A stretch of 64,000 nucleotides of DNA, taken from assembly GCF_900119185.1 (NCBI RefSeq), contig NZ_FPJE01000018.1:1-64000 (forward strand), given 5' to 3'. This DNA comes from Sinomicrobium oceani (GTDB lineage Bacteria; Bacteroidota; Bacteroidia; Flavobacteriales; Flavobacteriaceae). The position numbers were made by a program, and so were the translations under genes. Positions 19,423-63,267 of the stretch are shown here, piece by piece. Numbering within the stretch: the first letter of the stretch is position 1; each line of letters starts with the position of its first letter. The notes beneath the pieces are model-generated. The model was not told the DNA's origin. It saw only the letters and a list, made by a program, of their open reading frames with translations, and searched no databases.

Positions 19423-20274
19423 ATGAAAATAATCACTGTAGCTACCGATTTAAATAATTTCTTTTTAAGAAAATTCCTGGTTCCTTCTTGCGAATATTTT
19501 GGCTTCGATCTCGTCATTCTATATGCAAAGGCTCCCTGGGAAAGTCACCGTATGAAGGATAAATTATTAATCCCGTATTTAAAACAACTGAATTCTAATG
19601 AATTAATTCTATTTACGGATGCCTATGATACTATGATGCTCAACAATGCCCACCGGCTTATGGAGCTATATAGCCAACTTGAAGGCTCCTTCATTTTCTC
19701 ATCTGAAACGAACTGTTTTCCGGAACCCGATTTATCAACGGTTTATCATAAAATAAAAAATAATGATAATAATAACTATTTAAACAGCGGAGGATTTATA
19801 TGCCGATCCAATCATATATTAAAAATCTTGAGTAATCCTTCTCTAAATGCTAAAAAGATTTTAGAACCATTTGGTTTCAAAAATGATATTATAGATCATT
19901 ATGATAAAAGATATGGATGGAGTAATCAATATTATTGGACTTTAAAATACTTTTCGATGTATCCTGAAATAGAAATAGATACAGACTCGCGATTATTTTT
20001 AACAACGGGAACTCCTCTGGATCTATTTAAAGAAAGTTATGGAGAATATACACAGTATCAGGAGCAATCAAATCTTTACAAAAAGGAAAAAAATCGGTTA
20101 CGTAACATGATGGCATCATTGAAAGAAAAAAACGTTGTTCATTTACATTTTTTCAATACTGTTTCCAATCATATATTTCGGGAATTTTATCTTACAAATT
20201 CTTTTCCTAAGTGGATTTATGAAATCTTAGATTCAAAAAAAATAATTGAAAGAGCTGAAGTTATAGAATTTTAA
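19423..20274 (+). CDS. PLOD-like glycosyltransferase
   Basis: This 283-residue protein resembles the glycosyltransferase domain of procollagen lysyl hydroxylases (PLOD). It starts MKIITVATDLNNFFLRKF, and has ELILFTDAYDTMML with the DxxD-type metal motif near residue 67, GSFIFSSETNCFPEP, and NNYLNSGGFICRS. A late HLHFFNT provides a histidine for the metal site. Enzymes of this fold transfer a sugar from a nucleotide sugar. There is no signal peptide, so it acts in the cytoplasm. It converges with the glycosyltransferase-like gene of the peptide locus (108 bp apart) and has the same low GC, so it probably belongs to that locus. Confidence 0.75.
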   Translation: MKIITVATDLNNFFLRKFLVPSCEYFGFDLVILYAKAPWESHRMKDKLLIPYLKQLNSNELILFTDAYDTMMLNNAHRLMELYSQLEGSFIFSSETNCFPEPDLSTVYHKIKNNDNNNYLNSGGFICRSNHILKILSNPSLNAKKILEPFGFKNDIIDHYDKRYGWSNQYYWTLKYFSMYPEIEIDTDSRLFLTTGTPLDLFKESYGEYTQYQEQSNLYKKEKNRLRNMMASLKEKNVVHLHFFNTVSNHIFREFYLTNSFPKWIYEILDSKKIIERAEVIEF

Positions 20275-20382
20275 AGACATTATTGAGTAACCTGTAGGAG
20301 AGATATTACATATTACGGGATGCTCTGTAAGGCTCCCCCCAGACAGAAGCACTGTTAAAGACGGTATTTTCTTGGCAGAAGC

Positions 20383-21906
20383 CTATATTTGCTCTGTAGG
20401 ATGTTTAACATAAATACATTGATGAATAAAAAGTTTTTTTAAATGATGTAAAGTCAGGTTATATATGATATCGTAATTACTTTTCCCTTTACCGGGAGGA
20501 AAACATTTTTCCAGATATAAGACAATATCATTTATACAATGAGGCTCTTCCAGAAGTATTAAAATATTATAATCAAGTTCACTTATCACTACTTCTTTAT
20601 ATCCTTCAAAAAACAACCGTGGTACATATGCAAGTCCGAAATTCTCAACTTCGTCACCCAAAAGATCAGGGTTTATAGCTTCTTTTACAGCTTTATCCCA
20701 ACCGAAAGATTCTTCAAGTATTTCCAAATAACAATTTTTCTGAACAAGGGTTTCAGCTTGCTGTTCCTTTTTTAGATAAAAATAACTGTAAAAATCTGTA
20801 GCAGCCAGCTCTCCATCCAATAATTTCTGATTTTTTATATCTCCCCATTTCTGTTTTAATTCTTTCAACGTATCAGCAAATGAATTGACTTCTTTTGAAT
20901 TTGAATACGAACATTTATTAATAGTGTCAAGTTGATCTGATTTACATAGAGATTCATTTTTATGAGCAGGGACAGGTACGTTAGAGGTTTCGTACGTCCG
21001 AGTCAGAAAGAAACTGATCTTTTTTTCAAAATTTACATGTTCGTGACGAAAAAGAGAGACTATTTTATAAAAAAAATCGGGATATTCTTTAAGCAAGATC
21101 CGGCTAAGAAGTTCGCATATTTCTTGTTCTCGTTTCTTTGTTCCAATAATATGTAAGTATTTCAGGTTAAATGGTACTGCGGAAAAATCAGCAAACCTGC
21201 TGGACGAATAACCGCTATCTTTAAATGTTTCCGAAAATAAGGTAGTAACTTTTTTTTCTTCTGATCCGGTTAATGATGCAAAAAGTATTTGTTCAAAAAG
21301 TATATTAAAATTAATCGAAGGATTAAAGCCCTCTCTTTGATTATGATTAATAAATTTTATGGCCTCTTTTGTATATTCTTTTATAAAAGTTATGTCGGAC
21401 CCTCCTAAAATACCAGCATTATAAGACGTTATAGATTCTTTCTTTAAATTATCTATGAGGAAATCGGGAATATATTTCAGGTCCTTTTCCAGATGAGTCA
21501 TCATTTGTTTATAATAGTCTGTTCCGCGTTCAATATTTTGTGCAATTAAATCTCCGGCCTCTAAATGCTCAGGAAATCGTTCCCAAATAAACACGTCTCC
21601 ATCAACATGTATAAAAGACTCCTCTTGAGATGCATATGTCATTATCTTGGGTAAAGCCCATAAGCTTTCATGATAGTGATTGATCGTATCGTAACATACC
21701 TCAACACCTTTATAGGGCAACTTCAAATAATCGATGAGGATATTGTATCCGTGGGTATCTGTATACAGGTACAAATCTTTATAATATTCCTTTAACCTAA
21801 GACAACTTAAGGTCCAGGCCATTACATGATACTGTGGAGAATGCCAGCCAAAATTATTGGTTAGTAAGTTCTTACTACCAGACCATAACGATTGGACAAT
21901 TCTCAT
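20383..21906 (-). CDS. Large glycosyltransferase-like protein (DUF6734-type) with PqqD/RRE-like tail
   Basis: The protein has 507 residues. The first 300 resemble DUF6734 proteins, which look like glycosyltransferases: HSPQYHVMAWTLSCLRL, LYLYTDTHGYNIL, FIHVDGDVFIW with the D-x-D metal motif near residue 100, and SYNAGILGGSD. A variable linker follows. The last 70 residues (SELDYNILILLEEP, NDIVLYLEKCF, then NLTLHHLKKLFIHQCI) have the pattern of PqqD-like winged helices that bind RiPP leader peptides. The gene lies downstream of the double-glycine peptide and TlpA genes in the same direction. I infer, without proof, that it adds sugar to that peptide. Confidence 0.6.
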   Translation of the reverse strand: MRIVQSLWSGSKNLLTNNFGWHSPQYHVMAWTLSCLRLKEYYKDLYLYTDTHGYNILIDYLKLPYKGVEVCYDTINHYHESLWALPKIMTYASQEESFIHVDGDVFIWERFPEHLEAGDLIAQNIERGTDYYKQMMTHLEKDLKYIPDFLIDNLKKESITSYNAGILGGSDITFIKEYTKEAIKFINHNQREGFNPSINFNILFEQILFASLTGSEEKKVTTLFSETFKDSGYSSSRFADFSAVPFNLKYLHIIGTKKREQEICELLSRILLKEYPDFFYKIVSLFRHEHVNFEKKISFFLTRTYETSNVPVPAHKNESLCKSDQLDTINKCSYSNSKEVNSFADTLKELKQKWGDIKNQKLLDGELAATDFYSYFYLKKEQQAETLVQKNCYLEILEESFGWDKAVKEAINPDLLGDEVENFGLAYVPRLFFEGYKEVVISELDYNILILLEEPHCINDIVLYLEKCFPPGKGKSNYDIIYNLTLHHLKKLFIHQCIYVKHPTEQI

Positions 21907-22186
21907 ATAGTCAGAGTTCTATTGATTTGTATCATTACACATATAGAAGAACCATTATGGCCAAGGTAAAATTTTACGACCGGATACTACAAGCAGAATC
22001 AACATAACATCTTTAATACTAATAAAGCTATCATAGTTTTAGCTTTGGTAAAGCGTTGCCTATTGGTGTGGTCATAAAACTATCTCCCGCCCTGCAACAC
22101 GTAATAATACCTACTTAAGATCACAATGAATAAACGCATAAAGTTTCGATTCATATATACAACTCTAACCTATGAGTTCAAAAATA

Positions 22187-23389
22187 CTACTGCTTTTTAT
22201 CAACAGATATTGGTGAGCTAAAAATTTCACTAAGTTTTTTAACCAACGGGCTATTCTGTTCTATAACATTATAACGTCCCACTATAACCCCTTGCCTATC
22301 AACGAGAATATACATAGGTATGGTAGTCAGATCGTATTGATGACTAATATGATCAAAGGTTTCTCCGCGAGGCCCTACCAAAATATGCAACCAACTGTCC
22401 AGTTTCTCCTTTTGTATTGCATTTTCCCAGGCGATTTTGCTATGATCAAGAGACAGACTGACAATTTCAAGGCCTTCGTCTTTATAAGTCTCATACATTT
22501 TTTTCAGGTAAGGATTCATCCGTACACACGGAATACACCACGATGCCCAAAAGTCCAGCAGCACATATTTTTTTGATTGGAAAGATTTCAAGGATACCCA
22601 TTTGTCATGAATATCACGCATAAGAATCTCCGGCGCAACACTTCCGGCAACAGCTGTAGGTTTATCATCAGGTATCAAGCTCTTTTGTATTTGCCGGCCA
22701 TATTTATTGTTTTTTACAGCATCAGAAAGCATACTGTAATAATATTCCAGAGAATCCCCGGATATTCTCCCCGCATAATATCCCAATATATAAGAACTTA
22801 TAAATGTATTGTTATGAGTTTCTACAAAGTGCAGGTCAATAGCTTTAATACTGTCCTGAAAAGGAATAAGTTCGCGTCTCAGACTTTCCATTTTACGCAA
22901 CACCGTTTTAGAGGTATCTCCTTTCGCATAGCTATCCTTTATTTGTCCATAAGCCTTTTTAACAGGTTTACTCGAGGCTTCAATGGTTTTCTTCAACAGT
23001 TTCAATTCTTCCAGTATTTCCTGGGAACGTGAGCCTTCTATAACCACGTTTTTAAAGTCATGTTCTGTTAACGCTATGGTGGTTATTCCCGGCTCGATAA
23101 AAAATTCTGTCATATTCGGATCGTCAACCGCTCTCGATTTGGTGTTACCCTGTATTGTTACGCGTGTGGGTTCGGTAATTGAACCACGAAACTCGAATTT
23201 TCCGTTCTCTATCTTGGTCGTATCCTCTGTCCATATTGCATTCTCATCAAAATAAGAAATAGTAAGAGCTTTTGTATCCCGGCCTGTAAACTCTCCATAA
23301 ATCGTAAAATCATGCCCAGGTTTACCAGCTTGAGCGTATATCGCCCCGAAAGAAAAACTACAAATTATATATAACAAAAAATTTTTCAT
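22187..23389 (-). CDS. TlpA-type thioredoxin with DUF4369 domain, peptide-locus copy
   Basis: I chose the ATG at 23389 because it starts a clean signal peptide (MKNFLLYIICSFSFGAIYAQ); the frame is open further upstream. The 400-residue product has a DUF4369 beta domain at about 30-125, a helical middle, and an AhpC/TSA-type thioredoxin fold with WASWCIPC (Cys285 and Cys288) and a cis-proline loop TTIPMYILVD. It should act in the periplasm on disulfides. It begins about 95 bases after the stop of the six-cysteine peptide gene, which makes that peptide a possible substrate. It is closely related along its length to the TlpA at 37131-38306, with the CxxC at the same residue numbers. Confidence 0.88.
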   Translation of the reverse strand: MKNFLLYIICSFSFGAIYAQAGKPGHDFTIYGEFTGRDTKALTISYFDENAIWTEDTTKIENGKFEFRGSITEPTRVTIQGNTKSRAVDDPNMTEFFIEPGITTIALTEHDFKNVVIEGSRSQEILEELKLLKKTIEASSKPVKKAYGQIKDSYAKGDTSKTVLRKMESLRRELIPFQDSIKAIDLHFVETHNNTFISSYILGYYAGRISGDSLEYYYSMLSDAVKNNKYGRQIQKSLIPDDKPTAVAGSVAPEILMRDIHDKWVSLKSFQSKKYVLLDFWASWCIPCVRMNPYLKKMYETYKDEGLEIVSLSLDHSKIAWENAIQKEKLDSWLHILVGPRGETFDHISHQYDLTTIPMYILVDRQGVIVGRYNVIEQNSPLVKKLSEIFSSPISVDKKQ

Positions 23390-23484
23390 CGAGAATAATA
23401 TATTAAAAATATATAAAGTAAGAAGCATCGAAAAAATTCTTAGTAAACCTTTTCAATGCTTCATTGAATTACAGTACACATCCC

Positions 23485-23718
23485 CTAAGAAGTAGCACAG
23501 ATACTATAGTCCTGTTGTGGTATTTTAACACATTTCGGACAGTTTCCACCACATTCGCTGTCAGATGTACATTTCTGACCCGGCACACTACAGTTAAAGC
23601 CTCCGCTACCACCATTGCCTCCGCTACCATTACTACCTCCCAAAATTGCTTTCATTTGTGCCCTGGTCAATAATTCTTCTGCATTGAGATTTAGAGCTTT
23701 TAATTTTAGTTTTTTCAT
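23485..23718 (-). CDS. Double-glycine leader peptide with six-cysteine, knottin-like core
   Basis: The 77-residue precursor starts MKKLKLKALNLNAEELLTRA and QMKAILGG, a leader typical of Bacteroidota GG-type natural-product precursors, with cleavage expected after Gly28. The core starts with a glycine/serine/asparagine linker and then has six cysteines at 43, 50, 56, 60, 63 and 74. The loop lengths of 6, 5, 3, 2 and 10 fall in the range of inhibitor cystine knots. The central GQKCTSDSECGGNC resembles such knots. It is probably exported by a C39-type transporter (none in the window) and oxidised outside the cytoplasm. The neighbours are a TlpA thioredoxin, a winged-helix regulator and glycosyltransferase-like genes. 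The role could be a bacteriocin, signal or protease inhibitor; the sequence does not say which. Confidence 0.8.
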   Translation of the reverse strand: MKKLKLKALNLNAEELLTRAQMKAILGGSNGSGGNGGSGGFNCSVPGQKCTSDSECGGNCPKCVKIPQQDYSICATS

Positions 23719-23780
23719 GTTATTAAATTTTGATTAATAATTACAAATATTCAGAATCAGAATATATTATAAGTAGATTT

Positions 23781-24140
23781 TCAATCTTTTATATTTTTTT
23801 CACATGGCCTAAAAACTTTTATCTCATCAAAACAAAGGTTTTTTACATCTGAAAGATCTATTTTCTTCAATTCCGTTGTTGTCAATATTGCCTTAGCAGT
23901 AATTTTGTTTTCTACAAATAACTCCTTGACCATCTTTCCTTCCCTCGTATACAAATAGGTTTGCCTGTTTTTATCATATTTAATCGGAAACCCCATTCCT
24001 TTCATATCCTTTAACACATTGGCCAGACCGGATTTACTCAGATGAATTTTTCTCGCAAGCGTCCCCTGATCACCCGTGGCCTTCATCCGGATCAGAAAAT
24101 CAATATATTGTAACCTTAAAAAATACTTGGCTATTGACAT
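23781..24140 (-). CDS. Winged-helix DNA-binding protein of the peptide locus
   Basis: This 119-residue protein has an N-terminal helix-turn-helix: YIDFLIRMKATGDQGTLARKIHLSKSGLANVLKDMKGMGFPIKYDKNRQTYLYTREG, about residues 12-68, with the beta-wing including the YDKNRQTYLYT strand. Similar small HTH proteins often accompany double-glycine peptide genes in Bacteroidota, so it probably controls the precursor gene 62 bp downstream in the same direction. No effector-binding domain is apparent. Confidence 0.75.
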   Translation of the reverse strand: MSIAKYFLRLQYIDFLIRMKATGDQGTLARKIHLSKSGLANVLKDMKGMGFPIKYDKNRQTYLYTREGKMVKELFVENKITAKAILTTTELKKIDLSDVKNLCFDEIKVFRPCEKNIKD

Positions 24141-24151
24141 GTAAATTAATT

Positions 24152-24671
24152 TTAGGTTTTAGCAGTCATACGATAAAAGTATTTGAGATCAGTTACCGAA
24201 CATATTTCGGGCAACTGATAAAATTCAACAACCCCATTATCATCGTATAAAAACATGAAAAAAGTTGGTGTAAATCTATTTGAGTTTTCTCCACCCAACT
24301 GTGCATCGCCTCTATTTTAGAATATTGTTGTTTCAGCTCTCTATTGTGTGGATATTTAGATGTAAATAATTGATAATCCTTCAACAGTAAAAAATCATAG
24401 AATTCTTCTTTCCTTCCAATTACGGAATAAAAGGCGTTGAGATTTTACCGAACTTATCCCGATCCATCTGAATACCTATATTTTCTATTTCATAGCTGTT
24501 CAAAATATCACTAATACTTAAAAGACTTGGATAATCAGGATGTTCTTCGTTTTCTTTAGTAAGCGTCCGAATGGAAATTTTGACCTTTAGTAAATAATCT
24601 ATTTCCGGACCTTTTTCTTTTGGTTCCAAAAGTCTTCTGAAAGGTGTTAACATCACAAAAAATATGAACAC
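24152..24671 (-). pseudogene. Remnant of a C39-like / thioredoxin maturation protein
   Basis: Three frames must be joined. The first, from 24671, gives FRRLLEPKEKGPEIDYLLK and EEHPDYPSLLSISDILNSYEI, ending TPFIP and a stop at 24420. This is the C39-peptidase-like N-terminus of Bacteroidota VKOR/thioredoxin fusion proteins. The second gives EEFYDFLLLKDYQLFTSKYP. The third gives FTPTFFMFLYDDNG and YQLPEICSVTDLKYF, the C-terminus of the thioredoxin part. The VKOR membrane domain and the CxxC region are missing. It appears to be an internally deleted, frameshifted gene that once served disulfide formation or leader processing for the peptide locus. Confidence 0.7.
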
Positions 24672-25171
24672 ATATAATCAAATCGCATTGAAAAAGTATA
24701 AATATTTACAAATATTATAATAATATAGGTAAAAATCAAAAACAATTTAAAAAAACAACTTAACTATTTGGTAAGTAATAATTTTATATCAAATAAGAAT
24801 TATCTTCTAAAAAACAAAAAGACCATGATGATATAGCATGGTTCCTGTACACAAGTGGTTAAAAATATTCATAAGAAGACGGGTTCGTTTTCTCAAGATA
24901 TAGTTTTGGGGATTGTAGAACTAAAACCGTATCTTTAGGAAATTGGAAGCAGCACCGGAAAAGGTATGGAAAGCAGTCAGTTTGGAGCTTGTTCCTGTAA
25001 TTTGAACAGGGCCTGTTCTCATCATACGGAATCCAGGTGACAATAAAGAAACCCGAAACATGTGCTGACCGCGGTGTTCACCTGCCAGTAAACAGAATTT
25101 CCATTTCGAAAAACAGGTAAAATAAAACCTTGTTTTACAATCATTTGTAAAACCATTATGCCTTAAAATTA
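24672..25171. other. Gene-free AT-rich stretch
   Basis: About 500 bases lie between the divergent maturation remnant and the S41 peptidase. The left part is extremely AT-rich and could hold promoters for both sides. The right part contains short open frames without recognisable content. I see no repeat, RNA gene or convincing coding region. Confidence 0.5.
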
Positions 25172-27445
25172 ATGCCCCGTACCCTTAGCACTTTTGTAAA
25201 TTCGGTCCTTGTTTTAGTATTCCTCACAGCTTGCTCAAATCATACCACATTCAACGATCCTGAGCAGGAAAAGGAGATAGACAACCTTATGATTTTTGCA
25301 AAATCCTACGGATTGGTAAAATATTTTCATCCCAGCGACAATGCCGCTTCCATAGACTGGGATTTGTTTTCGGTATACGGAACAACGCAAATACTCGAAA
25401 ATACCGGTAAAGATTCCATAAATACCATACTCAAAAATATATATGCCCCTATTGCCCCAACGGTTTTGTTTAGTAATGAAAAACAATCGATTGAAAATAT
25501 CAACACTACAGATTCCTGTGTTAAATGGGCCTATTGGCAACATCAGGGGCTTGGCATGGATTCATACGATCCCAGTAAAATATATTATAGTGTAAGGGTC
25601 AATGCGATAACCCGGGAAAGTAAAGCATCCGGCCAGGGCAAAATTCTCAAAAGTTTCAGTGCTATAGATTACCATGGACAGGAAATAGCGTTCAGAGCAA
25701 AAGTCCGCCTGAAAGAATTTTCAAAAGGAACCGGACATTTGGTATTGAAAATTACAGATAAGAACGGAGAGGCCTTATTTTATAATGCGATGTCCCGCAA
25801 ACCGATAAAGAGCGGCGAATGGGCAGAATACACGATCAGCACGAAGGTAGACTCTTTGGCAAATAAAATTGCTTTTGGCTTCTCCCTTAAGGATCAAGGA
25901 ACACTGTTTATAGACAGCTATTCTATCTCACAGGGAAAACCAAATACGAATTCTGAAAAACTTATCCTCAGTAAAGGCAGCCCGATGGACTTATCAATGG
26001 ATTGGGAACGCGAGGGAAGCGGATATGCATTCTTACCTGAGAAGGAGCAAACCGATAAAGAAAATACAACCATAGCCTTAAAATTTACAGATTCTGTTAT
26101 TGAAAAAGTTGAAGATAAATTATTTGAAGAAACTCCAAAACCAAACCAAATCCTCACAAAAAAATTAGGTAATGCAACCTATTGTGAACTTCCCGTAACC
26201 CTTTGCCTGGAGCATGAAAAAACGCTCCCTATAGTCCCGGATCGCGATTTTGCTCAATTCAAGGAAAAGCTTAACAAAACTAAAATTGATACCAGCGGAC
26301 TGGGTTTCCGAATTGCCAATGTCATCAAGGTGTATAACATTGCCGAGCATTTTCATCCCTATTTAAAAGAGTTGGATGTAGACTGGGAAAAAGAGCTTAG
26401 AAATGCTATTGTAAAATCCTATGAAGACCGGACTTTTGCCGATCATGTAGCAACTCTCGAGGAGATGGTTGCCAGGCTAAAGGATGGGCACACCAGAATC
26501 GATGGGTATGATAAGGAAAAAGGAAGGCTCCCCGTGGCCTGGGATATTCTGGAAGACCAGCTGGTAATAACAAATGTTTTAGATGAGAAATTACCTGTAC
26601 ATATAGGCGATGTGGTCGTTAAAATAAACGGGGAAGATCCCGATACCTTTTTAGACAGGTTCCGGTCAAAAATATCTGCCGGAACCCCGGGCTGGCTCCA
26701 TGTGAGACTTGCGGAAGAATCGGTCATCGGAAAGCCCGGTGAGGAGATCACGGTCCGGGTAAATGGCAAAACCATCCCGCTTTCGTATACCGATACCATT
26801 TATAATGATGGAAAGCGAAAAAATTGGTACAGGCCGGCATACAAGGATATTTCAAAGGATACAAAATATATAAACCTTACCATGAATGATATTGAGGCTT
26901 TTAACAATTTAATTCCGAGATTGATTAAAGCCAAAAATCTTATCTTCGACCTGAGAGGATATCCCTATCCAAATCTCTCCTCGGATGTTATTTCCTATTT
27001 ACTTAAAGAAAAAGATACGGCATCTTCGTGGATGAGGTTGCCTAAATATATCTATCCCGACCAGGATAATGTTGCCGGTTATATAAAAGGAGATTGGCGT
27101 CTTGACCCCAAAAAACCTTATTTGGGCCAGAAAAACATTGTTTTTTTAACCAATGGTAAAGCTATTAGCTATTCCGAAAGTTTATTGGGGTATATCAAAA
27201 GCTATAAATTAGGCACCATTATCGGTGAACCTACTGCCGGAGCTAATGGAAATTATAATAAAAGCTCGCTATTAGGGGGGTTGAAATTTTTATGGACAGG
27301 ATTATATCTGGTACAACCAAATGGCGAAAAAGTCTATGCAAGGGGCATACTCCCGGATATCGAACGGAAAGAAACGATCGAAGGCTTAAAAGAAAATAAA
27401 GATGAAGTGCTGGATTTTGCCATTCGATACCTGGAGTCTATTTAA
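25172..27445 (+). CDS. S41-family (tail-specific) peptidase lipoprotein
   Basis: This 757-residue protein has a lipoprotein signal (SVLVLVFLTAC, Cys about residue 21), placing it at a membrane outside the cytoplasm. Residues 140-265 look like a jelly-roll domain (FRAKVRLKEF, GEWAEYTIS). A helical region with YNIAEHFHPYLKELDVDW repeats the pattern of the N-terminal YGLVKYFHPSDNAASIDWDLF. A PDZ-like segment follows near 450-530, and then the S41 core with LIFDLRGYPYP and NGKAISYSES, where Ser668 is the likely nucleophile, and GEPTAGANG. This layout is common for S41 peptidases in Bacteroidota. It is transcribed away from the peptide locus, and I see no operon partner. Confidence 0.88.
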   Translation: MPRTLSTFVNSVLVLVFLTACSNHTTFNDPEQEKEIDNLMIFAKSYGLVKYFHPSDNAASIDWDLFSVYGTTQILENTGKDSINTILKNIYAPIAPTVLFSNEKQSIENINTTDSCVKWAYWQHQGLGMDSYDPSKIYYSVRVNAITRESKASGQGKILKSFSAIDYHGQEIAFRAKVRLKEFSKGTGHLVLKITDKNGEALFYNAMSRKPIKSGEWAEYTISTKVDSLANKIAFGFSLKDQGTLFIDSYSISQGKPNTNSEKLILSKGSPMDLSMDWEREGSGYAFLPEKEQTDKENTTIALKFTDSVIEKVEDKLFEETPKPNQILTKKLGNATYCELPVTLCLEHEKTLPIVPDRDFAQFKEKLNKTKIDTSGLGFRIANVIKVYNIAEHFHPYLKELDVDWEKELRNAIVKSYEDRTFADHVATLEEMVARLKDGHTRIDGYDKEKGRLPVAWDILEDQLVITNVLDEKLPVHIGDVVVKINGEDPDTFLDRFRSKISAGTPGWLHVRLAEESVIGKPGEEITVRVNGKTIPLSYTDTIYNDGKRKNWYRPAYKDISKDTKYINLTMNDIEAFNNLIPRLIKAKNLIFDLRGYPYPNLSSDVISYLLKEKDTASSWMRLPKYIYPDQDNVAGYIKGDWRLDPKKPYLGQKNIVFLTNGKAISYSESLLGYIKSYKLGTIIGEPTAGANGNYNKSSLLGGLKFLWTGLYLVQPNGEKVYARGILPDIERKETIEGLKENKDEVLDFAIRYLESI

Positions 27446-32276: not shown

Positions 32277-32646
32277 AGAAACAGTTTTCTAATCCCTTAA
32301 CAATAATCCTGCCGGGACCACAAAAAATAAAGCTCTTAGATACTATCCGAATTTCAACTACCGCCTCTCCGGTATAAAAACACCTCCACAACCTCAACGG
32401 AACAGCGCCCCGGCTTATGATAGTTGCTTCTACTTTTCTTAAAATTCCCATATCCGGAAAAAATCCGGAACTTTTAAGATATTATGCCGGGCTGATCTGT
32501 ATATTTTTTCTAATATTAAATGGCAGAAAAAATTCTGATTATAGTACGTAAAGTTGCCAGGCAACAACGACGAACCCAAATGTACAGGACAGCTTACCAG
32601 CCAAATGGTATTTTATCCTTTTTTAAAACCCTATATACCCCTACTT

Positions 32647-35600
32647 ATGGAAAAAAGATTTGATGCCCCTACCGGAAACTCCACGAAACCCCAAACCACG
32701 GGACGTGCTTCCAACGAACAACAACATCCCGCTACAGCCACCATTTGCGGACTCATTGCACAAAACGCACAGGCACAACCCGGGCGTACGGCAATTATCG
32801 ATAGAAACCGGACTGTGACCTACGGGCAACTCACGGACCGGGCCCATGCTATTGCCGGAGAACTCGCGGCACGCGGTGTGGCATCCGGATCGCTTGTCGG
32901 GGTGTGTATGCACCGCCACTGGGAGCTGGCAGCTACCCTGCTGGGCATATTACAGGCCGGCTGTGCCTATGTCCCGCTCGATCCTGCTTACCCGAAAGAT
33001 CGCGTACGCTACATGCTGGAACATTCCCGTGCCGTGGCAGCTATAGTAGACGATGAGCACTGTGCAGCACGTTGTACGGGTGTAGACGAACTGGTATGGC
33101 TCAACGAGGTAAAAACGGAAAATACCACACCCCCTCCAGGCCCTTCTGCAAACGACCTCGCCTATGTCATCTATACCTCCGGTTCTACGGGTCGCCCCAA
33201 AGGAGTGGCTGTAACGCACCGCAACGTGGTGACCATGACCCGGGCCATGGCCGACATCCTGGATGCCAAAGCCCTGGAGGGTATGCTGGCCGCAACCTCC
33301 GTCTGTTTCGACCCCTCTGTTATGGAAATCCTGGGGACCTTAACCCTGGGCGGAACAGTGGTCCTTGCAGAAAACATGCTCGACCTGCCGGCCTTGTCAG
33401 CAAAAAACCTGGTAAAAAGCTGCGTGGTCGTGCCCTCTGCCATACAGGCACTGCTCGCCTCCGGATGGGTTCCGCGAGGCATACGCACTATCGTGTTTGG
33501 CAGTGAAGCACTGAAGCAGCCACTGGCCGACCAATGGTTTGCACTGCATACCGGGTCGCGGGTATTCAACGCCTACGGTCCTACCGAAGATACCGTCTTC
33601 TCCACAGCTACCGAGATTTTTAAGGACACCCGGAACATCACCATAGGAAAATCGGTCGTCGATTCCCGTTCCTATATTCTCGATGAAACGATGAACCCGG
33701 TTGCCCGGGGGGCGGAAGGCGAACTATTCCTGGCCGGAAACAAACTTGCCCAAGGCTATCTGTTTGACGAAGAACGTACCGCAGAACGTTTTATCAGCAT
33801 GAAACCTACCGATACCATTCCGGAGCATAGACTGTACAGAACCGGCGATCTTTGCCGGAGAAATAAAAACGGGGATATCGAATTTCTGGGTCGTATCGAT
33901 CAGCAAGTCAAGATCAGGGGTTTCCGGATCGAACTGGAAGAGGTCGAAACCGCACTGGAATCTATCCCCGGCATTACCGTAGCGGCCGCTGCCGCCATCG
34001 ATGGCGGTACGGGACAGAAAATACTCGTCGCCTATATCGTGAGTTCCCATACAGCGGTCGGCAGTGAAGACATAAAAAAACATCTCGCAAAAAAGTTGCC
34101 CGGTTATATGGTCCCGCAGCGGATCATTCCGCTGGAAGAACTCCCCCTCTTACCCAACGGCAAGCTCGATCGCAACCGGTTAACACACCTTGCCGATCCC
34201 GGACGGGAACACCGCGAAACCCTATCGCAAAACCTGCCGGGCCACCGCAAGGATGCCATACAAACCACAATCCGTAACGAGGTCTCCGCCATTCTCAATC
34301 TCCCCGACCCCGGATATATCCTGACGGACGATTCCTTCGACAGCCTGGGGCTCGATTCGTTGTCGAGCCTCGAACTGAGTGTCCGGCTTTCCAAACTATT
34401 CAACCTGAAACTTTCTGCTACCGTAGCCATGGAATACCCCTCTCCCGGAGCGCTCTCCCGCCATATCCTGGAGCGTAAAGACAACGGTACGGCTGACACC
34501 CCGGGAAGACCACCCTGTAAAGTTGCATCGGATACCCTGGGGACTTTCCAGGATCACATCCGCTCCAGCCACCCCACATTTCAGGCGGCAAAAGTATCCT
34601 CCTGGTCTGCCAACGACAAGAGCAAACTGGTACGGGAAGTGCTGCGTATGGTCAACGACCAGGACCGTAATCCGTACAGCAAAGTACTCCGTACCGGGAG
34701 CGCCACCCGGGGTACTGTTACCGATGCCTATAAAGACGAAGAACAGGAAGCTATTATATGGACCACCAACCTCTACCTGGGGCTGAACCGGGACAAAGAG
34801 GTGATCGCAGAAGCCGGTAAAGCGCTGCAGCAGTTCGGGAGCGGTATGGGAACTTCCGCAGCAGCTTCCGGGATGACCGACCTGCATGTTACCTTCGAAA
34901 AAGAGTTTGCCGGACTGGTAGGCAAACCCTCGGCCTGCCTTTTTCCTACGGGCTACACCGCGAATGTCGGCGCCGTAGCAGGGCTTCTCGGCAGGAATGA
35001 TGTCGTGGTCATCGATCAGCTCTGTCACGCCTCTATCGTAGACGGCGCCCGCCTGTGCGGGGCTGCGATCCGGACATTCCGGCACAACAGCGCCTCCGAC
35101 CTCGAAGCCGTACTGAAATCGGAAGTATCCCCGTACCGTACGGTCCTTGTGGTTCTCGAAGGGGTATACAGTATGGGCGAAGGTGCTGCGCCCGTGGCAG
35201 ACATTGTACGTACGGCAAAAGCGTATGGCGCATTGGTGCTGGTGGATGAGGCCCACTCCTTCGGGTTTTACGGCGAAGGCGGTGCGGGTATCTGTGCCGC
35301 ACAGGGGGTTACCGAAGAAGTCGATTTTATTATGACCACACTCAGCAAAGCCCTGGGTAGCCTCGGGGGCGTAGTCGCCGCCAGAAAAGATCATATAGAT
35401 CTGCTGAAATCATCATCGAGGGCCTATATTTTCCAGGCCTCTGTAAGTCCGGCCGACATGGCTGCGGCGCTTACCGCCTTACGACGGTTACGCGAAGACG
35501 ATAAACTGCGGGAACGGCTCTGGGATACGACCCGTTATATGCGCCGCCGGTTTACCGAAGCCGGCTATGACCTCGGCACAGGGGACGGTCCTATCGTAAC

Positions 35601-36228
35601 CCCGCATTTCAGCGACAAGGATACCTTATATGCCATCGTACAGGGCATGTACAAACGCGGTGTTCAAACCTCGGCAGTTACCTATCCTATCGTAGAAAAC
35701 GGAAGGGGGCGCCTCCGGCTGATATGCTCCTCCGCCCATACCCGTGACGATGTGGACAAAACCCTCGATGCGCTGATCGCTGCCGAACACGAGGTCCGTG
35801 CGCAGAAGCCCTCCGAAAGTAGCCGGAATACCGACAAAGAAACACGGATAGCCATGCAGGCCGACATAGAAAAGTGGCAGCACGATTTTGTAGCCTACCT
35901 CCGGGCCTCATTAGCCGGAACCCCCGTGCGGCAAACTCCCGATCTCGTGCTAACCGTACGTACTGCGGACGAGGAAAACCCGTCTTCCATAATTATCCGT
36001 AAACAGGAAATTACCACGGCTGCCGAAGATATCCCCGATCTTCCCCGGTGTACCCTGCTGCTCAAAGACAACCGGACGGTTACCGCCCTGCAAAACGCAG
36101 ACATACAGGAACTGCTGTACGGTATCAGCACAGGTTCCTGTGTGCTGAGCGGGCAGGTAGAACCCTTTGTCTGGTTTATGGCCCGGATCGTGGAAAAACA
36201 ACAACCCGTTATGGCAGCACTTTCATAA
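32647..36228 (+). CDS. Stand-alone megasynthase: adenylation - carrier - alpha-oxoamine synthase - SCP2-like tail
   Basis: The ATG at 32647 is chosen over an upstream TTG; the product is 1193 residues. Residues 30-520 are an NRPS adenylation domain with [14 protein letters not shown] (A3), [10 protein letters not shown] (A5), YRTGDLCR (A7), [18 protein letters not shown] (A8) and LPNGKLDR (A10). Its pocket residues, read by alignment to GrsA, are D-P-M-V-V-G-A-V-F-K. A carrier domain has LGLDSLS with the phosphopantetheine serine at 571. Residues about 640-1050 are a PLP alpha-oxoamine synthase ([27 protein letters not shown], Lys901). The last 100 residues resemble SCP2 lipid-binding domains. 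No condensation or thioesterase domain is present. The carrier-bound acyl group is probably joined to a free amino acid with loss of CO2, releasing an aminoketone. High GC separates it from its left neighbours. Confidence 0.88.
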
Positions 36229-37130: not shown

Positions 37131-38306
37131 CTATTCAAAAATTTCACCGAGTTTTTGCAACAGCGCGCCATCTTCTGTTATCGAATCATAACGCCCGACA
37201 ATTGTCCCTTCTTTATCGATAAGGATATACAAGGGGATGGTCGTAAGCCCGTAATGTTTACGGAACTCATCGAAAGCATCTCCCCGGAAACCTATCAGAA
37301 TATGGGTCCACGCATTCAGCGACGATTTTCGGATCTCGTTTTCCCAGGCGTCACGGTTATGATCGAGAGACAGGCTTACTATTTCCAGCCCACGGTCTTT
37401 ATAGGTCTCATATACCTTTTTCAGTTGCGGGTTCATCCGCACGCACGGGATACACCACGATGCCCAGAAATCGAGCAGCACATATTTTTCGGACCGAAAA
37501 GATTCCAGGGATACCCATTGGCCATCGATATCACGCATCCCGATCTTCGGGGCAACACTTCCGGGCATGGCAACAGGCTGCTCATCCGCGACCAGGGCCT
37601 TACGGATATCGCGGCCGTATTTGTTGTTTTTCGCAACATCCGAAAGCCTGTTGTAATAATATGCCAGGGAATCCCGGGATATTTTCCCCGTATAATAGCC
37701 CAACACATAAGCGCTGACAAAGGCGTCGCTGTAGGTTTCGACAAAGTTCAGGTCGATGGTTTTAAGGCGGTCCTGAAAAGGAAGGAGCTGACGTCTCAGG
37801 CTTTCCATCTTCTCCGTCACCGTCACGGACGTATCGCCCTTCGCATACACCGATTTGATCTGTGCATAAGCTTTTGCCACAGGTTTGCGCAAGGCTTCGA
37901 CATCTTTTCTCCGTACGTTCAGGGTATCCAGCAGTGCCTGGGACTTCGAACCTTCCGTCACCGCGTTTTTAAAATCGTGCTCAGTGACCCGTACCCTCAT
38001 CGCCCCGGGTTCTATGAATAATATGGTCCTGTCCGGATCGTCTACCGATCCCGATAGGGTATTCCCCTGTATGGTGACCAAGGTAGGTCGGATTACCGAC
38101 CCGCGAAATTCGAAGGTTCCGTCGGCTATCTTCGCCGTATCTTCCACCCAGACTGCATTCCTGTCGAAATAAGAAATGCTAATAGCCCGGGTACCGCTGC
38201 CGTTAAAGACGCCATATAAGATAAATTCACCTTCCGGTTTTCCCTCCTGGGCACCTATCATACAGCAGGAAAGCGCATATATTGCATACAGGAATAAATG
38301 CTTCAT
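37131..38306 (-). CDS. TlpA-type thioredoxin with DUF4369 domain, stand-alone copy
   Basis: The ATG at 38306 is chosen because it starts a signal peptide (MKHLFLYAIYALSCCMIGAQ). The 391-residue protein has a DUF4369 domain, a helical middle and a thioredoxin fold with WASWCIPC (Cys285/Cys288) and the loop TTIPLYILID. It should be a periplasmic disulfide oxidoreductase. Long blocks match the peptide-locus TlpA at 22187-23389 (VRMNPxLKKxYETYK, ASWCIP, TIQGNT, TEHDFKN, KNNKYGR), but the bases are much more GC-rich here. This is probably the housekeeping form and the other a transferred or duplicated one. Confidence 0.88.
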   Translation of the reverse strand: MKHLFLYAIYALSCCMIGAQEGKPEGEFILYGVFNGSGTRAISISYFDRNAVWVEDTAKIADGTFEFRGSVIRPTLVTIQGNTLSGSVDDPDRTILFIEPGAMRVRVTEHDFKNAVTEGSKSQALLDTLNVRRKDVEALRKPVAKAYAQIKSVYAKGDTSVTVTEKMESLRRQLLPFQDRLKTIDLNFVETYSDAFVSAYVLGYYTGKISRDSLAYYYNRLSDVAKNNKYGRDIRKALVADEQPVAMPGSVAPKIGMRDIDGQWVSLESFRSEKYVLLDFWASWCIPCVRMNPQLKKVYETYKDRGLEIVSLSLDHNRDAWENEIRKSSLNAWTHILIGFRGDAFDEFRKHYGLTTIPLYILIDKEGTIVGRYDSITEDGALLQKLGEIFE

Positions 38307-38460
38307 ACGACAATATATCAAAAATATACGGTATAGTACGCGGTTGTCCGGCAATAGCCCGGCAAAAAAGCGAACGAGATTAAAATCCCCTGAAAACAAT
38401 GATGTTATCTTCGAATAATCACATCTATATTTGCAGAACAGTCCTGAACGACATGCAGCA

Positions 38461-38892
38461 ATGAAAAACCAAAACATTCGCAACCCGTATTTTTATACGG
38501 TCATCGCAGTTTCTGCGCTTACTGTGGCCTTCCTGGTCTCTGCCGACAACGATATAGGCTGGGACTTTGCTGTGGTATGGTGTGGTTTTCTGCTATACAT
38601 TCCTTTACTCTTTGTGAAAAACCGGATATTCCAGGGTATCGTAATCGCGGCAGAATACCTGTTTATGTCACTGGTGTTCCTGGTGATCATGGCTTTGATC
38701 AGGTACGCTCCGGGAGAGCAACTGGGGGCATTGACCCTGTTTATCGTACATTCGTTTTTGCGCTTGTACATTTTTCTTAAAATAGCAGGAGCCGGAAACC
38801 GCTATGCCCTGGTCCTGGGCCTCGCTATTACGCTACTCCTGGGCATTGCAGTATATGGGTACGGCTCCACGGATTATCTCAAGCTGATGTAA
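38461..38892 (+). CDS. Small four-helix membrane protein of unknown function
   Basis: The 143-residue product starts MKNQNIRNPYFYTVIAVSAL and has about four membrane segments: TVIAVSALTVAFLV, FAVVWCGFLLYIPLLF, IVIAAEYLFMSLVFLVIMAL and YALVLGLAITLLLGIAVYGY. It is divergent from the TlpA gene, with 154 bases between the starts. No family recognised. Confidence 0.65.
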   Translation: MKNQNIRNPYFYTVIAVSALTVAFLVSADNDIGWDFAVVWCGFLLYIPLLFVKNRIFQGIVIAAEYLFMSLVFLVIMALIRYAPGEQLGALTLFIVHSFLRLYIFLKIAGAGNRYALVLGLAITLLLGIAVYGYGSTDYLKLM

Positions 38893-60955: not shown

Positions 60956-62071
60956 ATGAAAAAACAATTTTGTTTGCTTTGGCTTCTATGTTTTGTCACA
61001 TCGGCCATAGCTCAGGAAAATAATTATAAGATCAAAGGACATCTTACCGGAGACGATGTCCCTATGAAAGTATTGCTGTATTACCGGGACGGAAACCGTA
61101 AGGTTGCAGACTCTGTCATGGCAGAAAAAAACAGGTTTGTCTTTACCGGAAAACTCGATCATCCTACCCAGGCCGCTATATCTGTTCAATACCATTATCC
61201 TTCCGACAAGGAAAAGGATAGTATCATCAGCGAAGGAGTGAATTTTATGCTCGACCTCGGTACCACAACAATCCAAGGCACTTCCGTGCAAACAGCAGAA
61301 ATAAAAGGCAGCAAAGCACAGGAAGATTTTAAGGCCTATCGGAGTATTGTGGATTCTGTTGGAAATGTGGTCTACAAAATATGGAAGAGACAACAGGAAG
61401 AACTCCCGGAAGATTCTACCGCCGCTTTTAAGCGATTGTTATATGCCAGGAGCAAAATAATCAGAAGCATAACACAGCATTATGTAAAAACCCATCCCAA
61501 ATCCGGATTTTCCTTCTGGATACTGCAATCCAATACCGTATTGATCAACGATTTGGAATATGTCGAATCCCTTATGGAAATCTTGAAACCTGAATTCGGG
61601 AATTTTCCCCGTTTTAAAGAACTTGAAGAAAAAATTGTTCTTACACGAAGACTGGCTATCGGAGAAAAGGCGACGGATTTCTCCCAGATTAACGATCAAG
61701 GTGTTGAGGTATCGCTTTCAGATCTGAGAGGAAAATATGTACTGATCGATTTCTGGGCAAGCTGGTGCGGCCCATGCCGGGCCGAATATCCCTATCTGAA
61801 ACGGGTGTATAAAAAATACGGGCACAAGAATTTTGAGATCCTGGGGGTTTCCCTCGATGATAAAGAATCCGTCTGGAGAAATGCCATTACTTCCAATGGC
61901 TTCGAATGGATACAGCTTGCCGACTTAAAAGGACGTCACAATGCCGTAGCAATAGCGTATGGTATTTCGGCCATCCCTCAGAACTTCCTTATCGACCCTC
62001 AGGGAATAATCATTGCCAAAAACCTCAGAGGAGAAGAACTGGAGGAAAAACTGTCGGAAATCATCGACTAA
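60956..62071 (+). CDS. TlpA-type thioredoxin with DUF4369 domain (uptake locus, first)
   Basis: This 371-residue protein has a signal peptide (MKKQFCLLWLLCFVTSAIAQ), a DUF4369 beta domain (YKIKGHLTGDDVPMKVLLYY, about 24-115), a helical linker, and a thioredoxin domain with WASWCGPC (Cys271/Cys274) and the cis-proline loop SAIPQNFLID. It should reduce or exchange disulfides in the periplasm. It starts 17 bases after the SusD frame and is probably in the same operon. Confidence 0.9.
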   Translation: MKKQFCLLWLLCFVTSAIAQENNYKIKGHLTGDDVPMKVLLYYRDGNRKVADSVMAEKNRFVFTGKLDHPTQAAISVQYHYPSDKEKDSIISEGVNFMLDLGTTTIQGTSVQTAEIKGSKAQEDFKAYRSIVDSVGNVVYKIWKRQQEELPEDSTAAFKRLLYARSKIIRSITQHYVKTHPKSGFSFWILQSNTVLINDLEYVESLMEILKPEFGNFPRFKELEEKIVLTRRLAIGEKATDFSQINDQGVEVSLSDLRGKYVLIDFWASWCGPCRAEYPYLKRVYKKYGHKNFEILGVSLDDKESVWRNAITSNGFEWIQLADLKGRHNAVAIAYGISAIPQNFLIDPQGIIIAKNLRGEELEEKLSEIID

Positions 62072-62193: not shown

Positions 62194-63267
62194 ATGAAAA
62201 AAATAGTTATATTTCTCATCAGTCTCCTATGCTCAGCAACGATATATGCCCAAAAAATGAATGTACTTGGCGATATCCTGGCCTCAGCAGATTCGCTGGC
62301 TATCTTTTTTTACCAGCATACAGATGGTAGTTACCAGTACGACACCGTACCGGTAACACAAGGAAGATTTACCTGGGAGGCCGACATCCCGGAATACCAG
62401 AAGATCCTGACCACATTTTTGCCAAGCCGTAAATTTCTGGATTTTATTTCCGAAAACAGCACCATTTACCTTACCGGAAGAGCCAATGCTCTGGAAGTAG
62501 ATATTTACGGTTCCGGAGCCGAAAAAGAAGCAACCCTTTTTGGCCTGGAAATGCAAGACCTGACCCTCAACATCATTCAAAAATGGAATGCATACAGCAC
62601 AGCTTCCAAAACACAACAATCCGCCATAAAGAAAGAGATCGATGAGCTGAATACAAAAAAGTCCGAACAGACCGCGGCCTACATCAGGGAACATCCGGAC
62701 AGCGGTATGGCTGCAAACCTGGTCTATCAGATGGCCAGAACCGAAGATTACAATACGGTTTTTCCCCTTTTTTCCGCATTGAGCGAAACGACCCGAAAAA
62801 GTACTACCGGAAAGCTCATTGCAGAAAAACTGGAGAAGACCAGGAAGTATGCGCTCCAGGCCTCTATATTCAATTTTTCACAGAAAGACCCGGATGGCAA
62901 CATCATATCGTACGAAGATTTCAGAGGAAAATATCTCCTTGTAGACTTCTGGGCCAGCTGGTGTGCGCCTTGCCGGGCTGAAAACCCCAATATTCTCAAG
63001 GTATACAACACATATAAAGATAAAGGCTTTGAGGTCGTTGGCATATCCCTGGATACCGATGCCATAAAATGGGTAAAAGCCATCAAAGAAGATCATCTGC
63101 CGTGGCCCCAGCTCTCCGACCTCAAAGGATATCAGAATGAAATTGCCGTGTATTATGATATTTATGCCATTCCATATTCGCTCCTGGTTTCTCCGGAAGG
63201 AAAGATCATCGCAAAAGGGTTACGGGGAGAAGCCCTAAACAAAAAACTGTCCGAACTGTTTGATTAA
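62194..63267 (+). CDS. TlpA-type thioredoxin with DUF4369 domain (uptake locus, second)
   Basis: This 357-residue protein follows the same plan: signal peptide (MKKIVIFLISLLCSATIYAQ), a DUF4369-like domain that is shorter and poorly conserved, helices, and a thioredoxin fold with WASWCAPC (Cys257/Cys260) and YAIPYSLLVS. It differs strongly from the first outside the active site. Together with the partial DsbD next to it, it makes a periplasmic reductant chain plausible. Confidence 0.9.
   Translation: MKKIVIFLISLLCSATIYAQKMNVLGDILASADSLAIFFYQHTDGSYQYDTVPVTQGRFTWEADIPEYQKILTTFLPSRKFLDFISENSTIYLTGRANALEVDIYGSGAEKEATLFGLEMQDLTLNIIQKWNAYSTASKTQQSAIKKEIDELNTKKSEQTAAYIREHPDSGMAANLVYQMARTEDYNTVFPLFSALSETTRKSTTGKLIAEKLEKTRKYALQASIFNFSQKDPDGNIISYEDFRGKYLLVDFWASWCAPCRAENPNILKVYNTYKDKGFEVVGISLDTDAIKWVKAIKEDHLPWPQLSDLKGYQNEIAVYYDIYAIPYSLLVSPEGKIIAKGLRGEALNKKLSELFD

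What the first reader, a model, noticed from the sequence alone, without database searches (positions are those of the whole stretch)
23485..23718. A double-glycine leader fused to a knottin-like six-cysteine core
Seen: leader ends LGG at residue 28, then a flexible Gly/Ser/Asn linker and six cysteines with loops 6-5-3-2-10, within the range used by inhibitor cystine knots, and the knot-like segment GQKCTSDSECGGNC. Known: Bacteroidota GG leaders usually precede lanthipeptide-like or graspetide-like cores, and knottins are mostly eukaryotic. Inference: a secreted bacterial disulfide-knotted peptide, with the TlpA next door as folding or proofreading partner.
Basis: partly seen in the sequence, partly recalled or inferred. 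Interest (0 to 1): 0.75.

Follow-up and report, generated by a model that had tools for sequence, protein, structure and literature searches.

The report
Bacterial double-glycine peptide with knottin-like core
This is a small bacterial peptide of a secreted kind, probably cross-linked by three disulfide bonds into a knottin-like shape, and it belongs to a varied group of such peptides usually encoded beside a fused protein that looks like a dedicated disulfide-forming enzyme.

Summary
In detail: window 23718-23485, minus strand, encodes 77 aa; leader ends LGG (residue 28), then six Cys spaced 6-5-3-2-10. Three relatives keep all six Cys, and all four genes are followed by a TlpA-like gene; but 16 of 20 precursors in the ten named same-leader loci do not fit knottin spacing. 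At 47 loci with it, 84 GG precursors carry 4-12 Cys, even in 75; seven like-leader precursors at 23 exporter loci without it carry 0-2, with exceptions elsewhere. In loci fetched by the fusion alone, knottin spacing is enriched (9 of 34 six-Cys cores against 1.8). An AlphaFold model weakly resembles knottins. In the window the fusion is a deleted remnant; the neighbouring DUF6734 protein has a predicted glycosyltransferase fold. My paper searches found no such fusion in bacteriocin loci. Knot, oxidation and killing are inferred.

The parts
23485..23718 (-). GG-leader precursor peptide, 77 aa: leader residues 1-28, Gly/Ser/Asn linker, six-Cys core (6-5-3-2-10)
   Evidence: homologues
23422..23462 (-). 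terminator-like stem-loop between precursor and TlpA gene (possible partial terminator)
   Evidence: 18 pairs, 4 of them GC; 6 terminator-like sites found in 20200-25300 against 2.7 (sd 1.8) in shuffles, so weak evidence
22187..23428 (-). TlpA-like protein with DUF4369 and thioredoxin domain (WCIPC); likely start at the internal Met of MKNFLL (inference); proposed disulfide isomerase/reductase partner
   Evidence: Thioredoxin_8 8.6e-20, DUF4369 5.3e-14; downstream of same-framework precursors in L033, L086, L096
20383..21906 (-). DUF6734 protein, 507 aa; N-terminal ~285 aa predicted GT-A glycosyltransferase with invariant DxD (D102, D104); C-terminal ~220 aa unresolved
19423..20274 (+). GT_PLOD-type glycosyltransferase gene, convergent with DUF6734; possible further glycosylation enzyme
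   Evidence: PF25342 3.6e-21
23781..24140 (-). small protein, 119 aa, probably HTH, between the fusion remnant and the precursor; homologue sits upstream of the fusion in L034
   Evidence: 39% to L034:7664-8005, which scores as HTH_3 over its cut-off; the window copy itself has no significant Pfam hit
24167..24653 (-). remnant of the C39-like/VKOR/DsbA fusion gene: about the first 80-90 aa, then about the last 70 aa in two frames; VKOR part and DsbA active site missing
   Evidence: matches residues 1-89 and about 481-559 of intact relatives

Best explanation
The gene encodes the precursor of an exported, three-disulfide peptide of ICK-like (knottin-like) topology, one member of a hypervariable group of GG-leader, Cys-rich peptides in Bacteroidota. 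Proposed route: the leader steers the precursor to a C39-type ABC exporter (PCAT + HlyD), which cuts after GG and exports it; a membrane fusion protein (non-catalytic C39-like domain in the cytoplasm, VKOR quinone-linked oxidase in the membrane, DsbA-like thioredoxin in the periplasm) oxidises the emerging cysteines; TlpA-DUF4369 proofreads or isomerises them. In this window the dedicated fusion gene is a deleted remnant and no exporter lies in the locus, so the peptide would depend on the intact fusion paralogue on contig C36 and on an exporter elsewhere, or is on its way to loss. DUF6734 (GT-A fold) may glycosylate this or a related peptide. Most likely role: interbacterial antimicrobial (bacteriocin-like). 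Shown: precursor, gene order, domain make-up, Cys parity, spacing enrichment, remnant. Inferred: leader binding, topology, order of steps, oxidation, knot, glycosylation, killing.
For: Even Cys count in 75 of 84 GG precursors at 43 of 47 loci that carry a fusion ORF (binomial p 4e-14, treating precursors as independent, which those of one locus are not; the regex did not select on Cys); in the 40 loci fetched by the fusion alone, 62 of 71. Contrast: 23 exporter loci without the fusion gave 7 precursors (in 5 loci) by the same regex, all with 0-2 Cys. Fusion domains in L036: Peptidase_C39 5.6e-8, VKOR 6.5e-14, Thioredoxin_4 1.2e-11; six VKOR/DsbA-type Cys in 43 of 43 aligned fusions; C39 catalytic Cys column without Cys in 48 of 48 and His column without His in 47 of 48. 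C39-ABC-type cluster at 35 and HlyD cluster at 31 of the 47 fusion loci. ICK spacing: 9 of 34 six-Cys cores of the fusion-fetched loci against mean 1.8, maximum 7 in 3000 gap-order permutations; 13 of 51 against 2.2, maximum 8, in the whole set without the window. AF2 core model mean pLDDT 72.8, about 86 over residues 20-49, two C-terminal strands; of 14 Foldseek rows seven are peptides that I recall as knottin-type. TlpA cluster at 7 of 52 loci, including 4 of 4 loci with the window's motif. DUF6734: GT-A hits, best E 2.5e-6 to glycogenin; fusion in 5 and a Cys-rich GG peptide in 7 of 16 fetched DUF6734 loci.
Against: The window's own fusion is broken, so this locus may no longer make a mature product. 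Cys-rich GG precursors also occur with no fusion found in the fetched DNA: L035, L037, L039 and L041 (8 precursors, six Cys each; L039 has an exporter), and G002 (L053, six Cys); and lanthipeptide-like GG precursors with many Cys lie by an exporter on C52 of the own genome, which my regex does not catch. Foldseek gave no significant hit (best E 2.2; 4 of 14 rows are P2X receptors), from a four-row alignment in which MAFFT misplaced the first Cys. The partial Mantel test gives no special role to the C39-like domain (leader against C39-like given VKOR/Trx r 0.05, p 0.18; against VKOR/Trx given C39-like r 0.36), which is against my claim that this domain reads the leader. Seven of 48 fusions have a Cys within two columns of the catalytic one, and one of them, L086, a His nearby too. 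The exporters used as C39 yardstick were picked for a DCG motif (23 of 25), so their Cys is by construction. Nine of 84 precursors have odd Cys counts. Looser framework fits (L035, L121, L122) lack the TlpA cluster. DUF6734 also lies in four loci of phage- or injection-like look (not tested). No activity data exist.
Confidence: 0.58

Rival explanations
1. Glycocin-like product: the peptide is a disulfide-bonded glycopeptide, with DUF6734 (and perhaps the GT_PLOD gene) putting sugars on Ser/Thr/Cys, the way SunS does for sublancin; the fusion replaces BdbA/BdbB.
For: DUF6734 has a predicted GT-A fold and an invariant DxD in 14 of 14 rows; GT25-like genes at 7 of 10 named leader-clade loci (of the four members scanned from L034, L036 and L038, two pass the Pfam cut-off); Cys-rich GG peptides beside DUF6734 at 7 of 16 fetched loci. 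Parallel with glycocin gene sets (SunA/SunS/BdbAB/SunT), seen as a passage of PMC12457901.
Against: No sugar or acceptor site was tested; the core model shows strands, not the helices of glycocins; no GT2 domain was reported for either GT gene; the GT genes could make surface polysaccharide.
Confidence: 0.35
2. Disulfide-rich but not knotted: a class of oxidised GG bacteriocins (bacteroidetocin-like) in which Cys number is constrained but the fold varies freely; the ICK spacing of this one is incidental.
For: 16 of 20 precursors in the ten named same-leader loci do not fit ICK spacing; bacteroidetocins have four Cys and a thiol oxidoreductase gene whose deletion attenuates activity (passages of PMC6671954).
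Against: ICK spacing is enriched above permuted spacing and the CC pair falls at the knottin position (gap 3) in 13 of 52 six-Cys cores against 2-3 at each other gap (four of the 13 are in one locus).
Confidence: 0.35
3. Thioether-type RiPP (lanthipeptide or radical-SAM/TIGR04149 type), as for other Bacteroidota GG leaders.
For: The genome does encode LanC-like proteins and lanthipeptide-like GG precursors on C52; one relative (L086) scores sub-threshold against TIGR04149 (18.2 bits, cut-off 25).
Against: The LanC-like genes lie on C33, C52 and C13, not on the window's contig C9; no CxxxCxxC motif in any window open frame of 200 residues or more; the precursor has no TIGR04149 hit at E <= 1; even Cys numbers and the VKOR/DsbA fusion point to disulfides.
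Confidence: 0.05
4. Dead locus: the precursor is a relic that is no longer exported or oxidised because its maturase was deleted.
For: The fusion is a remnant; the only C39 match on contig C9 is that remnant, so no exporter is there; of five same-genus genomes searched only G002 gave a match below E 0.03, with a different core.
Against: Precursor, TlpA and DUF6734 frames are intact, and an intact fusion paralogue and three C39 exporters exist elsewhere in the genome.
Confidence: 0.3

Closest known systems
Bacteroidetocins (class IIf; PMC6671954, passages seen)
   Same: Bacteroidota; small GG-leader peptide; four Cys (at least two in distant members); thiol oxidoreductase and C39 ABC exporter genes; disulfides suggested by gel migration
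   Different: 15-16 aa leader against 28; four Cys against six with knottin spacing; separate 5-TM protein and thiol oxidoreductase, no C39-like/VKOR/DsbA fusion in the passages seen (whether those proteins are related to the fusion was not tested); the text has 0 occurrences of 'glycosyl'
Glycocins (sublancin, glycocin F, thermoglycocin; PMC12457901, passages seen)
   Same: Double-Gly-type leader, glycosyltransferase, thiol-disulfide oxidoreductases, C39 exporter; three-disulfide members exist
   Different: The GT here is DUF6734/GT-A glycogenin-like, not a SunS-type enzyme (recalled as GT2); the oxidases are fused and carry a C39-like domain; core model shows strands
Eukaryotic knottins / inhibitor cystine knot peptides
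   Same: Cys spacing fits the ICK consensus; weak model similarity to several
   Different: Bacterial GG leader in place of a signal peptide; topology not proven; no sequence homology found
NCBIfam NF047798 bacteriocin-like leader of Chryseobacterium
   Same: Similar leader end; the window peptide and L035, L040, L121 score against it
   Different: None of the nine precursors scanned passes its cut-off, and the model covers only the leader end

Membership tests
Inhibitor cystine knot (knottin) | Six Cys with spacing CX3-7CX3-8CX0-7CX1-4CX4-13C | tested here: met
   6-5-3-2-10; consensus from a passage of PMC4942781
Inhibitor cystine knot (knottin) | C1-C4, C2-C5, C3-C6 pairing with the third bond threading the ring | not testable with these tools
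   Model coordinates were not among the files open to scripts
Inhibitor cystine knot (knottin) | Knottin fold | tested here: inconclusive
   AF2 pLDDT about 86 over residues 20-49; knottin-type chains head the Foldseek list but E >= 2.2
Bacteroidetocin | Leader of 15-16 aa and four similarly placed Cys | tested here: not met
   28-aa leader, six Cys; feature from passages of PMC6671954
Bacteroidetocin | Thiol oxidoreductase, 5-TM protein and C39 exporter in the same region | tested here: not met
   Region has TlpA and a fusion remnant; no C39 exporter on C9; a relation of their 5-TM protein to VKOR was not tested
Glycocin | GG-type leader and locus glycosyltransferase | tested here: met
   (GT by predicted fold and by PF25342)
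Glycocin | SunS-type glycosyltransferase (recalled as GT2) | tested here: not met
   Neither GT gene was reported with a Glycos_transf_2-type domain
Glycocin | Sugar on Cys/Ser/Thr of the core | not testable with these tools
   needs mass spectrometry
Class I lanthipeptide | LanC in the locus | tested here: not met
   LanC-like matches at E <= 1e-5 only on C33, C52, C13; window is C9
Class I lanthipeptide | LanB in the locus | not tested
   not searched by family
TIGR04149 rSAM-modified RiPP | Precursor over the model cut-off and a radical SAM enzyme in the locus | tested here: not met
   no hit at E <= 1; no CxxxCxxC in window open frames >= 200 residues

The most novel reading that the evidence does not exclude
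Bacteroidota have a dedicated oxidative-folding system for a large, hypervariable family of secreted mini-proteins: a single membrane protein that joins a dead C39 leader-binding domain to a VKOR oxidase and a DsbA arm couples recognition of the GG leader with disulfide formation, so that one enzyme can fold very different cores, among them independently evolved bacterial cystine knots, some further glycosylated by DUF6734 enzymes.
Probability: 0.38. Interest if true: 0.82.

Novelty: new variant of a known kind. Interest (0 to 1): 0.62.

Why it matters
Knottins are prized stable scaffolds, and a bacterial, operon-encoded route with its own oxidase would give both a source of new folds and an enzyme set for making them. 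It also turns annotation blanks into testable functions: the two C39-like/VKOR/DsbA fusions scanned have no NCBIfam family above cut-off, and DUF6734 is a Pfam family of unknown function. The questions that become testable are leader-guided disulfide formation and peptide glycosylation.

Tried and rejected
Lanthipeptide and radical-SAM readings were tested and set aside. An RRE/PqqD-like domain in the C-terminal 220 aa of DUF6734 was suspected from the letters, but Pfam gave nothing relevant, AF2 left residues 289-476 under pLDDT 50 and BLASTP between long versions gave nothing below E 0.5: unsupported. A specific link between leader and C39-like domain failed the partial Mantel test. The search of 99 relatives with the precursor gave many low-complexity matches; by translation L004 (G002), L015 (G026) and L011 (G023) are GG precursors with a similar leader, and L018 (G005) is a lanthipeptide-like KGG precursor. 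In one search I had read the minus-strand loci on the wrong strand; one search repeats them. PDB sequence search with the precursor: the three alignments shown match Gly/Ser linkers; with the DUF6734 alignment nothing relevant. ICK spacing: the broad limits were recalled and used after I had seen the cores, and found in print afterwards; the strict limits agree (7 of 51 against 1.3). L033 and L035 are in the count although found by similarity to the window; one search repeats the test on the loci fetched by the fusion alone. The cluster called PCAT is single-linkage and may hold C39-less ABC transporters; the one in L037 looks like such a case. Papers: no hit for double-glycine + Bacteroidetes + vitamin K epoxide reductase or VKOR + C39 + bacteriocin; the 15 listed of 17 papers showed no such fusion in title or abstract start; the library lacks most subscription journals, so absence is weak.

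Full report
OBSERVATION. The reading frame is real and lies on the minus strand, 23718 to 23485: 77 aa, MKKLKLKALNLNAEELLTRAQMKAILGG, then SNGSGGNGGSGGFN and six cysteines with loops 6-5-3-2-10. No curated family claims it: sub-threshold hits only.

RELATIVES. One scan of named genomes gave ten loci, from Pedobacter, Mucilaginibacter, Chitinophaga, Flavihumibacter and metagenome bins. The leader is strongly kept; the cores are all Cys-rich but differ. These ten loci hold 20 regex-found precursors, all with an even Cys number, 4 of 20 within ICK spacing (L033, L035, L040 twice). Among them L033 (Pedobacter duraquae) is closest to the window's core (4-5-3-2-10). Two loci reached through the fusion, L086 (genome G207, 3-5-3-2-9) and L096 (genome G196), keep it too, so that all six Cys are invariant in 4 of 4 aligned precursors. 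In L096 the motif is doubled (12 Cys). In the same genus, G002 has the leader with another six-Cys core.

THE MISSING PARTNER. Beside the precursors of L033, L034, L036, L038, L040 and L042 stands a 532-572 aa protein. Pfam reads two of them (L036, L038) as Peptidase_C39, VKOR and Thioredoxin_4. The C39 part is probably not a protease: aligned with 23 exporters, 0 of 48 fusions have Cys in the catalytic Cys column and 1 of 48 has His in the His column. The exporters were picked for a DCG motif, so their Cys is by construction; their His (23 of 23) is not. Seven fusions have a Cys within two columns, and L086 has a His nearby as well. The four VKOR-type and two DsbA-type Cys are present in 43 of 43 fusions. 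A hydropathy scan gives five membrane segments between the C39-like and thioredoxin parts in L036 (for two other proteins the segments overlapped and I did not resolve them), which puts the C39-like part in the cytoplasm and the thioredoxin in the periplasm if VKOR keeps its usual orientation (inference). The fusion occurs in at least 54 of 397 genomes of the window's family at E <= 1e-20 (at most three candidates were scored per genome).

WHAT THE FUSION GOES WITH. I fetched 40 regions, mostly the best-scoring of the 73 match rows, and added the ten named loci, contig C36 of the own genome and the window: 52 loci. A regex for GG leaders, blind to Cys, was run on them. In the 47 loci with a fusion ORF it found 84 precursors in 43 loci; four of the 40 fetched regions gave none (L090, L099, L113, L120). 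Cys counts in the cores: 4 (25), 5 (5), 6 (43), 7 (4), 8 (6), 12 (1): even in 75 of 84. In the 40 fetched regions alone it is 62 of 71. With one precursor drawn per locus, over all loci with precursors, the even fraction is 0.91. As contrast, 23 exporter loci without the fusion (20 fetched, plus three of the own genome) gave 7 precursors in 5 loci, with 0, 0, 0, 0, 1, 1 and 2 Cys; 18 gave none. My script flagged two of the 23, L164 and L168, as fusion-like; their matches cover the C39-like part only, which I take to be the exporter's own C39 domain. The contrast is not clean: the regex misses lanthipeptide-type leaders such as the Cys-rich ones on C52, and Cys-rich like-leader precursors occur without a fusion in the fetched DNA of L035, L037, L039, L041 and L053; L039 has an exporter there. 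C39-ABC-type clusters are at 35 and HlyD clusters at 31 of the 47 fusion loci.

KNOTTIN SPACING. In the 40 regions fetched by the fusion alone, 9 of 34 six-Cys cores (7 of 23 loci) fit the published ICK consensus; permuting the gap order within each peptide gives a mean of 1.8 and a maximum of 7 in 3000 trials. In the whole set without the window it is 13 of 51 (10 of 33 loci) against 2.2, maximum 8. The adjacent CC pair, typical for knottins, falls at the third gap in 13 of 52 (7 loci) and at each other gap in 2 or 3. The AF2 model of the window's core has mean pLDDT 72.8, about 86 in residues 20-49, with two C-terminal strands. Foldseek has no significant match; 14 rows at E 2.2-8.5, of which seven are peptides that I recall as knottin-type (1hp3, 9ep7, 8uwf, 2roo, 1g9p, 1q3j, and 6msu with EETI-II) and four are P2X receptors. 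I read this as in favour of, not proof of, a knot.

THE WINDOW'S OWN LOCUS. Order on the minus strand: fusion remnant (24653-24167), HTH-like protein (24140-23781), precursor, stem-loop, TlpA-DUF4369 (23428-22187), DUF6734 (21906-20383); GT_PLOD lies opposite (19423-20274). The remnant keeps about the first 80-90 and last 70 residues of the fusion, the latter in two frames; the oxidase core is gone. An intact fusion paralogue sits on C36 with a four-Cys precursor, and three C39 exporters lie on C52, C13 and C33. So the peptide either borrows these or is decaying.

TlpA. The TlpA cluster is found at 7 of 52 loci; BLASTP shows further TlpA-like proteins in L034 and L039 outside that cluster. All four loci whose precursor has the C-x5-C-x3-C-x2-C motif with DS(E/D) (window, L033, L086, L096) have it after the precursor, on the same strand, with a gap of about 50-230 bases. 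Looser framework fits (L035, L121, L122) do not have the cluster.

GLYCOSYLTRANSFERASES. DUF6734 is found in 17 of 397 family genomes. The predicted structure of the window protein matches GT-A enzymes, glycogenin best (E 2.5e-6), with its confident residues mostly in the first 285, and a DxD is invariant in 14 of 14. In 16 fetched DUF6734 loci the fusion is present in five (L147, L149, L150, L152, L153) and a Cys-rich GG peptide in seven (L146-L151, L153); four others look like phage or injection-system loci (from ORF starts only, not tested). GT25-like genes occur at 7 of the 10 named leader-clade loci. Glycosylation of the peptide is therefore possible and untested.

LEADER RECOGNITION. Leader distance correlates with fusion distance over 43 loci (r 0.41 with the C39-like part, 0.52 with VKOR/Trx), but the partial test gives no special role to the C39-like part. 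Leader binding by that domain rests on analogy with C39-like domains of type I secretion (recalled) and is not shown.

COMPARISON AND NOVELTY. The working parts match glycocin and bacteroidetocin loci (GG precursor, thiol oxidoreductase, C39 exporter; passages of PMC12457901 and PMC6671954), but leader length, Cys number, oxidase architecture and glycosyltransferase type differ, so I file it in neither. The two fusions scanned have no NCBIfam name above cut-off, and my paper searches found no description of it (search listings only, in a library without most subscription journals). I call it a new variant of a known kind.

Noticed in passing
32554-36228 (+): 1224-aa protein joining an AMP-binding (adenylation) domain, a carrier domain and a class I/II aminotransferase domain, at the start of a stretch (about 32-54 kb) with GC 0.47-0.57 against 0.33-0.46 elsewhere.
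   Followed up: no
22187-23428, 37131-38483, 60956-62071, 62194-63267: Four TlpA-like ORFs within one window, all matching the TlpA genes of the peptide loci.
   Followed up: partly
L049:3458-3634 and L046:301-1866: A second, intact fusion gene in the same genome with a four-Cys, GK-ending precursor nearby; the ORF next to it looks SusD-like (recalled, not tested).
   Followed up: partly
L147:9541-9696, L149:9944-10156, L153:5571-5726: Conserved Tyr/Cys-rich GG peptides (YYCANVNP motif) next to fusion, DUF6734 and a ~208-aa unknown protein: perhaps a second peptide sub-family of this system.
   Followed up: no
L155, L156, L158, L159: DUF6734-like genes inside loci whose ORF starts look like phage tails or contractile injection systems (not tested).
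   Followed up: no
L096:8661-8993: Precursor with 12 Cys in which the window's six-Cys motif appears to be doubled.
   Followed up: partly
L051:9908-11039: Own genome, contig C13: three GG precursors with Cys-free, hydrophobic Gly/Val-rich cores beside a C39 exporter, class II bacteriocin-like.
   Followed up: no
L003:1052-1315, 1495-1707 (own genome, contig C52): Lanthipeptide-like, Cys-rich GG precursors in a cluster with a LanC-like gene and a C39 exporter on the same contig.
   Followed up: no
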